NCBI GenBank assembly: GCA_013619035.1
Contig: JABXKX010000086.1
Location: 1 to 7,122 of the forward strand
DNA length: 7,122 nucleotides
Source: Peptostreptococcaceae bacterium
Lineage (GTDB): Bacteria > Bacillota_A > Clostridia > Peptostreptococcales > Acidaminobacteraceae
Reading direction: 5' to 3'
Part shown: positions 2,672 through 6,497 of the stretch, one piece after another
Layout of the letters: each line of letters starts with the position of its first letter
Numbering within the stretch: position 1 is the first letter of the stretch
Notes under the pieces: generated by a model
The model's input: the letters and a program-made list of their open reading frames with translations, nothing else
What the model was told of the DNA's origin: nothing
Databases searched by the model: none
Position numbers and translations under genes: made by a program

Positions 2672-3547
2672 ATGGATATTAACTTTGAACTTTATAAAAT
2701 CTTCTATTTTACTGCATTAAATCTAAGTTTTACAAAAGCTGCCGAACAGCTGTTTGTGACCCAATCTTCAGTCAGTCAATCTATTAAATCGCTTGAAGGA
2801 AAGTTAAATGTAAAACTGTTTAAAAGACATAAAAAAAAGATTGAACTTACAGATGAAGGACATATTTTATATTTACACGTAGAACAGGCTTTTAATCACC
2901 TAAAAGCTGCCGAAAGAAAATTAGAGCATTTTAATTTAGGTGAAATTACCATAGGGGCTAGTGATACAATCTGTAAATACTTCTTATTGCCCTATTTTAA
3001 GAAGTTTCACAAAAAATATCCTGAAATCAAAATCAATATCATCAACCAACCTTCTAGACAAACATTAAAGATGATTCAAGAAGGTCTCATGGACTTTGGT
3101 ATCGTTGCAGTTTCTGAAAATAAACAGTTTGATAATATTCAGCTGATTAAACTAAAGGACTATCAAGAAGTCTGTATTGTCGGTGAGGAAATCTATCAAA
3201 ACACAGGCAATCAATTAACACTGGATCAATTAGAAAAGTATCCTATGATTACACTCAGGAAAAACACCAATACTAGAAAGTTTATGGATGATTTCTTTAA
3301 GTCATATGATTATGTACTTGAGCCTGAGTTTGAAATGGTCAGTGTGGATTTAATCATTGAAATGGTTAAAGCCGACCTGGGGATTGGTTTTGCTATGTCA
3401 GATACCATCAATGAGCAAACCGGTATTTATACCATTGAATTAACACCACCAATGCCCAGTCGACATATATCATTTGCTATCAGTAAAATATTGCCTCTTT
3501 CAGATACAGCAAACGATTTTATGAATCATATGATCAACGAAAAATAA
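2672..3547 (+). CDS. LysR-family transcriptional regulator
   Basis: A 291-residue DNA-binding regulator of usual LysR length. The N-terminal winged helix-turn-helix spans about residues 1-60, with the HTH core at about 19-40 (FTKAAEQLFVTQSSVSQSI) followed by the typical LEGKLNVKLFKR wing. The rest, about 90-288, is the effector-binding domain with a periplasmic-binding-protein fold. AGGAGGG at 2658-2664 sits 7 nt before the ATG, which fixes the start over an out-of-frame ATG at 2668. It is divergent from purL and convergent with the HesB-like selenoprotein gene. LysR regulators often control a divergent neighbour and themselves, but PurL is not an obvious target. Proximity to the Se/S genes makes a link to sulfur or selenium metabolism possible. 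The effector cannot be read from the sequence. No strong U-tract terminator follows it on the plus strand. Confidence 0.95.
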   Translation: MDINFELYKIFYFTALNLSFTKAAEQLFVTQSSVSQSIKSLEGKLNVKLFKRHKKKIELTDEGHILYLHVEQAFNHLKAAERKLEHFNLGEITIGASDTICKYFLLPYFKKFHKKYPEIKINIINQPSRQTLKMIQEGLMDFGIVAVSENKQFDNIQLIKLKDYQEVCIVGEEIYQNTGNQLTLDQLEKYPMITLRKNTNTRKFMDDFFKSYDYVLEPEFEMVSVDLIIEMVKADLGIGFAMSDTINEQTGIYTIELTPPMPSRHISFAISKILPLSDTANDFMNHMINEK

Positions 3548-3559
3548 TTAAAAATAAAA

Positions 3560-3592
3560 ATCCTTTACAACATTTTAGATGTTGTAAAGGAT
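3560..3592. terminator. Perfect 14-bp hairpin between convergent genes
   Basis: The arms ATCCTTTACAACAT (3560-3573) and ATGTTGTAAAGGAT (3579-3592) pair perfectly around a TTTAG loop. On the minus strand it is followed by TTTTTATTTTTAA, so it would work as a second terminator for the selenoprotein transcript. On the plus strand, 13 nt after the lysR stop, it is followed by ACAAAAAA rather than a T-run, so for lysR it may only slow polymerase or protect the 3' end. Confidence 0.7.
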
Positions 3593-3594
3593 AC

Positions 3595-3621
3595 AAAAAA
3601 AAAGTACTCAATGAGTACTTT
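3595..3621 (-). terminator. Rho-independent terminator of the HesB-like selenoprotein gene
   Basis: Read on the minus strand, AAAGTACTC / GAGTACTTT (3613-3621 with 3601-3609) forms a 9-bp stem with a 3-nt loop. It runs straight into nine or more Ts (3603 down to 3595). It begins 4 nt beyond the TAA stop at 3625-3627. This is a textbook intrinsic terminator. Confidence 0.85.
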
Positions 3622-3624
3622 AGT

Positions 3625-3939
3625 TTAACCGCAGCTGCCTGAGCATGAACCACATTCTGATTCTGATTGTTGGATAGGGCGAACCATATATCCTCCACCT
3701 GATAATTCTACCATGATGTCACCGATTTGCTCATAAATGTCCTTCGCCATAATGAAAGTTACGTCATTTGTGTCGTCTTTCAAATCATTTTCACTTAACT
3801 CATCCAGAGTTAAACCAAAGCTAGGACCACTTCAACCCATACCTGCAATGTAAATTCTTACATTACCAGGTTGGTCTGCTTGCTGCTCAACGATACCTTT
3901 GATCGCATCAACAGTTTCTTGATTAGTTTGTACTTTCAT
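3625..3939 (-). CDS. HesB/IscA-like selenoprotein with in-frame UGA (Sec36)
   Basis: A 104-residue protein read through one in-frame TGA at 3832-3834. It starts MKVQTNQETV, has RIYIAGMG-Sec-SGPSFGLTLDE at about residues 28-46, continues NDVTFIMAKDIYEQIGDIMVEL, and ends ECGSCSGSCG. The fold is that of HesB/IscA A-type carriers, which bind or transfer iron-sulfur clusters through one central cysteine and two C-terminal ones. The Sec replaces the central cysteine, and C96, C99 and C103 form the tail. A family of HesB-like selenoproteins with this arrangement is established. AGGAGGG (3945-3951) lies 5 nt before the ATG at 3939. The frame is intact on both sides of the TGA, ends in TAA, and is followed by a terminator, so this is not decay. 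A standard gene caller would split or miss it. Substrate and partners are unknown. A recent nonsense mutation is the only serious alternative, and the SECIS-like hairpin argues against it. Confidence 0.9.
3795..3813 (-). promoter_or_regulatory. Candidate bacterial SECIS hairpin
   Basis: On the minus strand, TTAACTC and GAGTTAA form a perfect 7-bp stem around the loop TGGAT; two G-U wobbles (3814-3815 with 3793-3794) can extend it to 9 bp. The loop begins 26 nt after the TGA and has a G at its second and third positions. Bacterial SECIS elements lie within the coding region just downstream of UGA and present a small G-containing apical loop to SelB. Position, loop size and G placement all fit. 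No folding energy has been calculated. Confidence 0.7.
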
Positions 3940-3963
3940 GCAAACCCTCCTCTTCTTATTGTT

Positions 3964-4056: not shown

Positions 4057-4192
4057 TCAACTACTTGAACACAATTCGCGTTCTAATTCATGTTATACCA
4101 CGGTTTCACTAAGTTCAACCACCAGATAATTCAACAATCAGATCTCCAACTTGTTCATAAATTTCTTTTGACATAATAAATGATACATCATT
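4057..4192 (-). pseudogene. Decayed partial second copy of the HesB-like gene
   Basis: Minus-strand positions 4192 to 4118 translate to NDVSFIMSKEIYEQVGDLIVELSGG without a stop. This matches the intact gene's NDVTFIMAKDIYEQIGDIMVELSGG (3694-3768) at 19 of 25 residues. Upstream of it an A-run shifts the frame, and no start, UGA or central motif survives. Downstream come stops (TGA, TAG, TGA), and then, in a shifted frame, GAA...TGT-TCA-AGT-AGT-TGA (4057-4077), a possible worn trace of the cysteine/serine tail; that last part is weak. The fragment lies directly after the 112-residue membrane protein gene. It looks like the 3' half of a diverged paralogue truncated by deletion. It is not expected to make protein. 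Confidence 0.8.
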
Positions 4193-4217: not shown

Positions 4218-4556
4218 TTAAATTCTTACCACAAGAATTGACAGAATCAGAATAATCGCACCATTGGCTAACATCAGCCATCCATCGACCAATTTAGCTT
4301 TTGCTGTATCTTCTTTTTCTTTCTTCTCTTCTGGAGAATATCGCTCATTCATATTACGTTTCATACTTGAAAATAAGTTCGACATATTCGAAGCAGTATA
4401 AGCACCGTATCCCATTACCACAATACCAGCATAGGTCAACATGTCTGAAAATGTTTTAAACGACCAACCGAATCCAGCGACAGCTACAGTCAAAATTATT
4501 GATATGATAATAGCAATACTTAAGATCAAACCATTCTTCATTAGTTTCTGCTTCAT
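4218..4556 (-). CDS. Small membrane protein of unknown function
   Basis: A 112-residue protein with three likely membrane helices at about 9-29, 38-58 and 92-111. Between the second and third is a charged, helix-forming loop (about 64-90) rich in Lys and Glu, including ERYSPEEKKEKED. No signal-peptidase site or catalytic motif is visible. AAAGG upstream (about 7 nt before the ATG at 4556) supports the start; a second Met at position 6 is possible. I do not recognise the family; it loosely resembles the small uncharacterised two- to three-helix membrane proteins common in Bacillota. It is transcribed alone: the genes on either side of it are remnants, and the nearest intact genes are the selenoprotein downstream and the DUF3343 gene upstream. 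No clear terminator follows, so read-through into the decayed HesB copy is likely. A promoter such as TTGTTT-17-TATGCT lies upstream but is weak. Confidence 0.75.
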   Translation of the reverse strand: MKQKLMKNGLILSIAIIISIILTVAVAGFGWSFKTFSDMLTYAGIVVMGYGAYTASNMSNLFSSMKRNMNERYSPEEKKEKEDTAKAKLVDGWLMLANGAIILILSILVVRI

Positions 4557-5024: not shown

Positions 5025-5265
5025 AGTCATTTTCAAATACCAAATGATATGTATCATTCACTTCATAAATTCTGTGGATATTTTCGGTTGAAACTTCCGA
5101 TATAATATTATCATAATTCTCTGATTCAAATCGAAGTGCTACACCACAATCCACACTAAGCTCTCTTGGTGCAGGCATTGTTTCACAATCAATATTATTT
5201 TTTTTCATATAACGTTCCAAAGCCATTACGCCTGAAAATGTATGAAATATAACCAAGTAACTCAC
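5023..5265 (-). CDS. DUF3343 putative Se/S carrier-like protein
   Basis: An 80-residue cytoplasmic protein of the DUF3343 family, described as putative selenium/sulfur carriers. The diagnostic block is PAPRELSVDCG at residues 31-41, with the conserved cysteine at C40 followed by Gly; a second cysteine is C27. The N-terminus (YLVIFHTFSGVMALERYMKK) matches the usual strand-helix opening in which the family tracks its substrate-handling site. The start is GTG at 5265. The stop TAG of the TusA gene and this GTG share one base (TAGTG), so translation is probably coupled and a weak ribosome binding site suffices. It is the last gene of the operon with yedE and tusA. The role as a carrier of reduced selenium or sulfur is family inference, not shown by this sequence. 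Confidence 0.9.
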   Translation of the reverse strand: MSYLVIFHTFSGVMALERYMKKNNIDCETMPAPRELSVDCGVALRFESENYDNIISEVSTENIHRIYEVNDTYHLVFEND

Positions 5266-5456
5266 TATTTCTTAGCCTTAATTAAATAGTCTTCAATGTT
5301 AACTGTGTACTTATTATTTTCTAAGAATCGTTTTACATTTTGAAGCGCTGTATTATTATCAACAATAACTTCTAAAGAAGCTGGTTGATTTTTAATAGCT
5401 TGTTTTGTTTTTAAAACAGGTTCTGGACATGAAAGTCCTGATGTATCAATTGTCAT
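5265..5456 (-). CDS. TusA/SirA-family sulfur (selenium) carrier, YedF N-domain-like
   Basis: A 63-residue TusA-fold protein. The signature DTSGLSCPEPVLKTKQAI spans residues 4-21, with the persulfide-forming cysteine at C10 in a CPEP motif. TusA proteins carry sulfur as a cysteine persulfide; the KTKQAI continuation resembles the N-terminal domain of YedF proteins from selenium operons. It is shorter than usual TusA (75-81 residues) and lacks the C-terminal half of full YedF. GGAGG (5462-5466) sits 5 nt before the ATG and overlaps the TAG stop of yedE. It therefore lies between yedE and the DUF3343 gene with no spacing at either end. It probably accepts sulfur or selenium brought in by YedE. 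A thiosulfate-transport pairing (TsuA/TsuB type) is the main alternative. Confidence 0.92.
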   Translation of the reverse strand: MTIDTSGLSCPEPVLKTKQAIKNQPASLEVIVDNNTALQNVKRFLENNKYTVNIEDYLIKAKK

Positions 5457-5465
5457 GACTGCCTC

Positions 5466-6497
5466 CTAATCTCTATTAACCAAACTAACGAATAATAAGA
5501 AACCTATCAAAATCACTAATGCAGGCATTGTATTATTTGCAGCTCCTACTAATTTTAAATTATGCGCTATACCAGCACCCATCATCAATCCCATAATTGT
5601 CACTGATGAGTCTACATTTCCTTCACTTGATAATACCAATTGTCTAAGAGGACAACCACCTAATAAGACAGAGCCCCATCCTGCAACTACCATACCTAAG
5701 AAGTTTACATACCAAACACTATGAGCTGCTGGTTGACCTTCAAATCCAAGATTAAAGTTACCAAAAATTAGATTGGTAATAAGTGCACCTACAAAGATAC
5801 TTACAAAACCCAACAATAAATAACTATCTTTGAACATCACAGAATCTCTAATACCACCAACCATACAAAGACGCGTTCTTTGGGCTATTACACCTGTAAT
5901 TAGTCCAGCTCCTAAAGAAAGTAATATTGGTGCATGTGGCGGTAATTTCCCCTCAACACCGAAAATTAAAAATGCTGGTTTCATGATGACCAATACCAGT
6001 AAAGCAACCATAATGGCTGGTAACATGTAACCACCGGCTTTGGGTTGTTTGTAGTTTCGTTTCAAACTGAAGCCTTTATTTAAGAAATAAATACCCACTA
6101 AAATACCAAAAGCAAATCCTATGATTCCGATAATGGCATTTAAGTCACCACCACCTAATCTAAGTACCATTCGAAGTGGACAGCCCAAAAATGCGAGTGC
6201 GCCAATCATCACCGCCATACCTAAAAGGAATCTAATAAACGGCGATGAACCACCCTTTACACTAAATTCTTTTGATAGTATTGCTGCAATAAATCCACCT
6301 AAAACAATACCGATAACTTCTGGTCTGATATAGGCTAACTTTGATGTACTATGTAGTCCTAAACTCCCTGAGATATCTCTTAGAAAACAAGCAATACAAA
6401 CACCCATATTACCTGGATTACCAAACTTCACCAAAAGTCCTGACATCACACCAATGATTAGGCCGCCTATTATCATCCATAATTTCTTTTTATTCAT
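5466..6497 (-). CDS. yedE: YeeE/YedE-family transporter, putative selenium (or sulfur) uptake protein
   Basis: A 343-residue polytopic membrane protein of the YeeE/YedE family with about nine hydrophobic segments, in the usual size range. It shows the family's internal repeat: FLGCPLRM (103-110) in the first half and GGCPLRQLV (280-288) in the second. Other conserved cysteines lie in GVCIACFLRD (C34, C37) and RTRLCMVGGIRD (C211). Such cysteines line the substrate path in thiosulfate-transporting relatives. The long form with this cysteine set next to TusA/YedF genes is typical of selenium-metabolism YedE. GGGAGGG (6501-6507) precedes the ATG by about 3-5 nt. It heads the operon, and its TAG stop overlaps the next gene's ribosome binding site. 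The substrate cannot be settled from sequence: selenium species are favoured by the nearby selenoprotein, and thiosulfate is the rival. Confidence 0.93.
   Translation of the reverse strand: MNKKKLWMIIGGLIIGVMSGLLVKFGNPGNMGVCIACFLRDISGSLGLHSTSKLAYIRPEVIGIVLGGFIAAILSKEFSVKGGSSPFIRFLLGMAVMIGALAFLGCPLRMVLRLGGGDLNAIIGIIGFAFGILVGIYFLNKGFSLKRNYKQPKAGGYMLPAIMVALLVLVIMKPAFLIFGVEGKLPPHAPILLSLGAGLITGVIAQRTRLCMVGGIRDSVMFKDSYLLLGFVSIFVGALITNLIFGNFNLGFEGQPAAHSVWYVNFLGMVVAGWGSVLLGGCPLRQLVLSSEGNVDSSVTIMGLMMGAGIAHNLKLVGAANNTMPALVILIGFLLFVSLVNRD

What the first reader, a model, noticed from the sequence alone, without database searches (positions are those of the whole stretch)
3625..3939. Hidden selenoprotein: HesB/IscA-like protein with UGA at the central cysteine
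Seen: a 104-codon minus-strand frame with good ribosome binding site, TAA stop and terminator, interrupted only by a TGA at codon 36. The surrounding residues GMG-(TGA)-SGPSFGL place it where HesB/IscA proteins have their first cluster-binding cysteine. Known: HesB-like selenoproteins exist, and Sec commonly replaces a functional Cys. Inference: Sec36 together with the tail cysteines C96, C99 and C103 forms a redox-active or cluster/selenium-binding site. Standard gene calling leaves this gene out or splits it.
Basis: partly seen in the sequence, partly recalled or inferred. Interest (0 to 1): 0.85.

Follow-up and report, generated by a model that had tools for sequence, protein, structure and literature searches.

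The report
Selenocysteine-containing HesB/IscA-like small protein
The interrupted little gene is a real, complete gene whose internal UGA most likely encodes selenocysteine; it is one more HesB-like selenoprotein, a kind known for two decades whose job is still unknown.

Summary
Window 3625-3939 (-) is a 104-codon gene with ribosome binding site, TAA stop and terminators, interrupted only by TGA at codon 36. A close relative, G191 (89-93% DNA identity in the long aligned blocks), has the same TGA plus selA, selB, tRNA-Sec and a selD with its own TGA. Of 68 distinct relatives with in-frame TGA, window included, 66 have it before xGP, where 59 of 60 others have Cys. A hairpin just after the TGA, in one of two registers, occurs in 38 of 42 non-redundant TGA genes against 3 of 45 Cys genes, and in a hold-out set in 21 of 22 against 2 of 13. 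The model has the IscA/SufA fold. The kind is known: 'HesB-like protein', motif UxGP (PMC1794560, PMC13188914). New are details: scores under NCBI's cut-offs, two hairpin registers, recurrent adjacent Sec/Cys pairs (24 of 26), and a decayed second copy beside the gene. Function is unknown. The window's own genome is not held, so the Sec machinery was tested only in relatives.

The parts
3625..3939 (-). HesB/IscA-like selenoprotein gene, 104 codons plus TAA
3832..3834 (-). TGA codon 36, read as selenocysteine
   Evidence: aligned with Cys in HI1723 and AQ_1857
3795..3813 (-). SECIS-like hairpin, register A: at least seven pairs, loop UGGAU whose first base is the 26th after the UGA
3946..3951 (-). 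ribosome binding site AGGAGG
3601..3621 (-). intrinsic terminator-like hairpin
3560..3592 (-). second terminator-like hairpin, between the converging hesB and lysR genes
4115..4183 (-). remnant of a second, decayed hesB-like copy (the half that would hold the Sec/Cys codon is not there)
   Evidence: blastn match of this stretch to the intact gene of L060, 77% over 74 nt; profile match to the same remnant in L059, 21 bits
5023..5265 (-). DUF3343 (Se_S_carrier) gene, neighbour
5265..5456 (-). TusA domain / YedF-like gene, neighbour
   Evidence: YedF model below its cut-off
5466..6497 (-). YedE putative selenium transporter gene, neighbour
   Evidence: 450 bits, cut-off 200
2672..3547 (+). LysR-type regulator converging on hesB; near but not in the selenium LysR family

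Best explanation
The gene encodes a full-length IscA-fold selenoprotein. SelB with Sec-tRNA reads UGA36 as selenocysteine, guided by the hairpin whose UGGAU loop begins at the 26th base downstream. This is inferred from comparative evidence, not shown by experiment. The Sec sits where Fe-S carrier proteins have a conserved Cys (shown by alignment; that it is their first ligand is recalled). A flexible tail with C96, C99 and C103 could close over it. The most likely chemistry is a reversible selenolate-thiolate centre: a selenenylsulfide, or a labile iron-sulphur or metal site shared with the tail cysteines. I put the redox-pair version first (about 0.4) because many Sec forms, in two groups that the tree keeps apart, have one tail Cys, while no Cys form counted does so. 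Neighbouring yedE, tusA/yedF-like and DUF3343 genes suggest use within selenium metabolism in this lineage. The confidence given is for the selenoprotein claim, not for the chemistry.
For: TGA in the three nearest genomes (98, 83, 76% identity) and before xGP in 66 of 68 distinct rows with in-frame TGA, against 36 TGT, 23 TGC and 1 GCT in the 60 rows without. Hairpin in 38 of 42 TGA genes against 3 of 45 Cys genes; synonymous-codon shuffles give mean 8.6 and at most 15 of 42; hold-out 21 of 22 against 2 of 13. In the 23 register-A genes, pair 20-34, which the definition does not require, is formed in 23 of 23 with types UA, AU, GC and GU. G191 has selA 612 bits, selB 395, tRNA-Sec 71 and selD 398 with its own TGA, all over cut-off. 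Fold search ranks 1-5, 7, 8 and 10 are HI1723, SufA, IscA and AQ_1857 entries, rank 9 DsrR, rank 6 an entry titled an integrative model. Tail Cys counts: Sec rows 50 of 95 with three, 39 with one; Cys rows 85 of 90 with three, none with one (rows include repeats of one gene).
Against: The window's genome is not held, so its own Sec machinery is untested. Two of the TGA genomes, G188 and G157, gave no strong tRNA-Sec hit (47.2 bits; best E 4.2e-5), and G196 only a selB fragment; whether these assemblies are incomplete was not checked. The window's hairpin is not unusually stable by itself (z -0.42; 37% of synonymous shuffles do as well). The two registers were defined after seeing the first set; only the hold-out is free of that. 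Four of 42 TGA genes lack either register. Scores are below the curated cut-off of both HesB selenoprotein models. 21 of 39 homologues with that column have Cys (query not counted). The groups with one tail Cys are not joined by starred branches. No chemistry was tested.
Confidence: 0.93

Rival explanations
1. The TGA is a real stop from mutation or a sequencing error, and the gene is a recent pseudogene.
For: Stop codon in frame by the standard code; a decayed neighbour copy shows that copies do die here.
Against: Same TGA in a separate genome whose gene differs by 5 of 315 bases, 4 of them silent, and in many diverged genes at the same codon with the protein conserved after it.
Confidence: 0.02
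2. UGA is reassigned to tryptophan in this organism, as in code 4.
For: 18 of 39 homologous protein records have W at this column, which I take to be TGA read by table 4; none of the seven frames checked in the window ends in TGA.
Against: YedE and the LysR match their family models over nearly the whole length (1-332 of 337; 2-296 of 298) in frames without TGA, and TGG stands in YedE (3) and the 112-aa gene (2); these frames were called with TGA as a stop. Of 60 distinct homologous rows without TGA, 59 have Cys and one Ala at this place. The nearest genomes carry the whole Sec apparatus.
Confidence: 0.02
3. It is a selenoprotein that acts as an A-type Fe-S carrier, the Sec being one cluster ligand, with the tail cysteines as the others.
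For: IscA/SufA fold; Sec on the conserved Cys of HI1723 and AQ_1857; conserved tail cysteines.
Against: The tail is CGSCSGSC, not the C-G-C of IscA (recalled definition); in 39 of 95 Sec rows only one tail Cys remains; no Fe-S_biosyn match for the window protein at E 0.01, 20 of 62 aligned members match.
Confidence: 0.3
4. It is a selenium-handling protein (carrier or chaperone between YedE import and SelD), the Sec being a selenium acceptor.
For: Neighbours YedE, TusA/YedF-like and DUF3343 in the window and L089, L090, L091.
Against: These genes were matched in only 4 of the 89 stretches inspected, window included (stretches of up to 13 kb, some cut short by contig ends), so the link looks confined to this lineage.
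Confidence: 0.2

Closest known systems
HesB-like selenoprotein (literature family; TIGR01911 HesB_rel_seleno, NF038090 IscA_HesB_Se)
   Same: IscA-type fold, single Sec followed by xGP (UxGP in Table 1 of PMC13188914), SECIS-like hairpin after the UGA, Cys homologues in relatives.
   Different: Scores 44.2 (cut-off 66.35) and 56.4 (cut-off 85); the ten relatives scanned singly also fall below both. Three-Cys tail CGSCSGSCG, whereas many Sec relatives have a single tail Cys.
HesB-like selenoprotein of Methanococcus maripaludis
   Same: Identified there by mutagenesis and 75Se labelling, as cited in PMC11097638 (passages seen).
   Different: Archaeal, function not clear; a disruption mutant was not impaired in nitrogen fixation (unpublished observation cited there). 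Not compared by sequence here.
IscA / SufA / ErpA A-type Fe-S carriers
   Same: Fold and place of the conserved Cys.
   Different: Sec instead of Cys, different tail spacing, below the cut-offs of the three Fe-S carrier models that matched.
YedE-YedF-DUF3343-LysR_Se selenium gene set (PMC5322559, passages seen)
   Same: YedE, TusA/YedF-like and DUF3343 genes lie upstream on the same strand.
   Different: The main text of that paper has no mention of HesB. The window's LysR is not LysR_Se: the copies over cut-off lie elsewhere in G191, G174 and G162.

Membership tests
HesB-like selenoprotein | in-frame UGA followed by xGP (UxGP motif) | tested here: met
   USGP at residues 36-39; motif from Table 1 of PMC13188914
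HesB-like selenoprotein | UGA aligned with a conserved Cys in homologues | tested here: met
HesB-like selenoprotein | bacterial SECIS: small apical loop with guanosine just after the UGA (PMC1088965, passages) | tested here: met
   window loop UGGAU; 38 of 42 and 21 of 22 TGA genes against 3 of 45 and 2 of 13 Cys genes
HesB-like selenoprotein | Sec machinery in the genome | tested here: inconclusive
   window genome not held; complete in relatives G191, G174, G162
NCBIfam models TIGR01911 and NF038090 | score over the curated cut-off | tested here: not met
   44.2 against 66.35 and 56.4 against 85. I therefore do not file it under these two models, only under the literature kind.
A-type Fe-S carrier (IscA/SufA/ErpA) | fold | tested here: met
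   Foldseek E 4.1e-5 to HI1723, 7.3e-5 to SufA, 1.0e-4 to IscA
A-type Fe-S carrier (IscA/SufA/ErpA) | three cysteines C...C-G-C (recalled) | tested here: not met
   U36 and CGSCSGSC tail
A-type Fe-S carrier (IscA/SufA/ErpA) | binds and transfers an Fe-S cluster | not testable with these tools
   needs purified protein
LysR_Se regulator (neighbour gene) | NF040786 over cut-off | tested here: not met
   146 bits against 250; copies over cut-off elsewhere in G191, G174, G162

The most novel reading that the evidence does not exclude
HesB selenoproteins commonly work as a Sec form partnered with a Cys form, as a mixed dimer or a selenium-controlled pair of isoforms. Adjacent genes are almost always one Sec and one Cys (24 of 26 pairs distinct by tail, in either order and in several groups of the tree). 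The window carries a Sec gene beside a decayed copy, while its nearest genomes keep, on another contig, a Cys paralogue that is the sister group.
Probability: 0.25. Interest if true: 0.55.

Novelty: new member of a known kind. Interest (0 to 1): 0.37.

Why it matters
With the standard code only a 52-codon piece of this gene is listed, and the protein also scores under the two curated models closest to it. The passages seen say that the function of the M. maripaludis HesB-like selenoprotein is not clear (PMC11097638). The recurrent Sec/Cys neighbours, the single tail Cys found only in Sec forms, and the selenium-import genes beside this copy give concrete tests.

Tried and rejected
Stability of the single hairpin as evidence: not significant on its own; the comparison of TGA with Cys genes was used instead. 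Rfam at gathering scores and a tRNA scan of the window: nothing. The genome-contig scan could find only Cys or Trp codons at the site because its pattern was G[CW][SG]GPSFGL, so it says nothing about TGA; whole-genome searches replaced it. Co-occurrence of TGA genes with Sec machinery as a statistical test: too little contrast, since tRNA-Sec was over cut-off in 75 of 80 and selB in 76 of 80 genomes, many with only Cys copies seen; the tRNA-Sec model also gives hits near 45-50 bits, several per genome, which I take to be other tRNAs. LysR as LysR_Se: rejected. Gene neighbourhoods of other groups gave no functional hint that I could use: the most shared neighbour, in 27 loci and on the same strand, looks by eye like a methyltransferase and was not identified further. 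The tree has few columns for its rows; 56 of 132 inner branches are open. Rows dropped before the hairpin counts: of 189 rows, 3 without the motif, 4 with score under 60 and 66 repeats, leaving 62 Sec and 54 Cys, then near-copies over 88% identity, leaving 42 and 45.

Full report
What is in the sequence. The minus strand at 3939-3625 reads ATG to TAA over 104 codons with one interruption, TGA at codon 36, + strand positions 3832-3834. AGGAGG lies six bases before the ATG. Two terminator-like hairpins follow. The chance that 68 codons stay open after the TGA is about 0.009 at the window's stop-triplet frequency, so the frame by itself proves little.

Homology across the TGA. A search of predicted proteins gave 41 hits. 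Of these, 39 have a residue at position 36: 21 Cys and 18 Trp (the query not counted). I read the Trp as TGA translated by table 4; the contigs behind those records were not seen. Profiles closest to the protein are NF038090 IscA_HesB_Se (56.4 bits, cut-off 85) and TIGR01911 HesB_rel_seleno (44.2, cut-off 66.35), both below cut-off. Ten relatives scanned singly also fall below both. Of 62 aligned members, all match both models at E 0.001; the best TIGR01911 E-value is 8.7e-22, its score not shown, so some members may pass.

The same TGA in genomes. No genome is held for the window. In 393 genomes drawn from the order of G005 (Fusibacter tunisiensis, by locus L005), 164 had a match (its match list was cut). 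The three nearest, G191, G174 and G162 at 98, 83 and 76% identity, each have one TGA in the frame. Against G191 the gene differs at 5 of 315 bases, 4 silent; six neighbouring genes differ by 7.0 to 9.6%. Of 128 distinct rows read by script, 68 have an in-frame TGA, 66 of these before xGP; the two others are a weak copy in L074 and the decayed copy in L059. The 60 rows without TGA have TGT (36), TGC (23) or GCT (1) there.

Machinery. In G191, G174 and G162, selA, selB, selD and tRNA-Sec are all over cut-off, and selD has an internal TGA in each. In 80 genomes chosen (80 of the 99 first listed), tRNA-Sec was over cut-off in 75 and selB in 76; 14 control genomes gave 5 and 2. The four without selB over cut-off are G196, which has a TGA copy and a selB fragment, and G035, G143 and G255, in which I saw only Cys copies. 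G188 and G157, with TGA copies and selB, have no strong tRNA-Sec hit. This is consistency, not a strong association.

The hairpin. Most TGA genes have one of two hairpins: register A, loop UGGAU (20 of 23; UGGAC 2, UGGAA 1) from the 26th base after the UGA, or register B, loop GGUC, GGUU or GCUU from the 22nd. After removing near-copies, 38 of 42 TGA genes and 3 of 45 Cys genes have one; shuffling synonymous codons gives a mean of 8.6 and a maximum of 15 of 42. These definitions were drawn from the same sequences, so I tested genes fetched later, from the class search and leftovers: 21 of 22 TGA genes and 2 of 13 Cys genes. In register A, the pair 20-34, not required by the definition, is formed in all 23 genes by four pair types. 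The window has register A. Its fold is not more stable than shuffles, which counts against using stability as evidence.

Fold and site. AlphaFold gives mean pLDDT 84.6 and pTM 0.73, with residues 93-98 and 102-104 under 50. Foldseek's best solved structures are HI1723, SufA and IscA. Sequence alignment puts U36 on the Cys of GGCSG in HI1723 and AQ_1857. The tail CGSCSGSCG differs from the C-G-C of IscA (recalled).

Evolution. A tree of 135 proteins without the Sec/Cys column needs 17 changes between Sec and Cys; starred branches alone force 7; shuffled labels need about 44. The window's Sec gene groups with those of G174 and G162 (support 82), and the sister group is the Cys paralogue found on another contig in G191, G174 and G162 (support of the whole group 97). 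Of 48 adjacent pairs, 26 are distinct by residue 36 and tail: 20 Cys then Sec, 4 Sec then Cys, 1 Sec then Ala, 1 Cys then Cys, none Sec then Sec. The loci were found through a Cys or Trp codon, which favours pairs with a Cys gene, and many pairs come from Fusibacter and its kin. The window has a remnant of a second copy at 4115-4183, also present in G191; its Sec/Cys half is lost.

Surroundings. Upstream on the same strand lie a 112-residue gene with hydrophobic stretches (by eye), DUF3343, a TusA/YedF-like gene and YedE. Of 89 stretches inspected, the last three were matched in the window, L089, L090 and L091 only; the converging LysR in the window and seven others. The LysR is not the selenium regulator LysR_Se.

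What is known. PMC1794560 (passages and table pieces by term) lists 11 HesB-like selenoproteins in Table 1 and one in Alkaliphilus in Table 3. PMC13188914 (passages) gives motif UxGP and TIGR01911. PMC11097638 (passages) says that the M. maripaludis protein was identified by mutagenesis and 75Se labelling and that its function is not clear. PMC5322559 (passages) proposes YedE, YedF, DUF3343 and LysR_Se; its main text has no HesB. Searches for HesB with selenocysteine and tandem, and for IscA with selenoprotein and selenocysteine, listed no paper whose title or start of abstract concerns adjacent Sec/Cys pairs; the texts were not read for this, except a term search of PMC1794560, which has neither 'tandem' nor 'adjacent'.

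Verdict. A real HesB-like selenoprotein gene, of a known kind, scoring under the curated models. The chemistry is open.

Noticed in passing
window 4115-4183 (-), tail remnant perhaps to about 4056: Decayed second hesB-like copy between the intact gene and the 112-aa gene, also present in G191 (L059); the tail remnant is tentative and by eye.
   Followed up: partly
L001-L008, L010, L013, L019, L023, L065, L068, L071, L072, L074, L099, L104, L109, L110, L113, L115, L116: Adjacent same-strand HesB pairs of one Sec and one Cys gene, in either order.
   Followed up: partly
TGA genes: Two SECIS-like hairpin registers four bases apart within one family: loop UGGAU and loop GGUC/GGUU/GCUU.
   Followed up: partly
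Sec genes such as L005 4714-5001, L169, L173: Many Sec forms have a single tail Cys; the Cys forms counted have two or more.
   Followed up: partly
window 3625-3939 against L089: The gene differs from G191 by 1.6% while six neighbours differ by 7.0-9.6%; constraint or recent exchange, not resolved.
   Followed up: no
window 4218-4556 (-): 112-residue gene with no family match over cut-off, next to the hesB gene, kept in L089 and L090.
   Followed up: no
G191:C10:46216-46476, G174:C100:6965-7228, G162:C82:31541-31792: A further HesB-like frame with one TGA in each of the three nearest genomes, scoring higher on TIGR01911 than the copy orthologous to the window gene.
   Followed up: no
P0041: A 76-residue record joining an unrelated-looking N-terminus to the second half of this protein; perhaps a mis-called or chimeric frame.
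   Followed up: no
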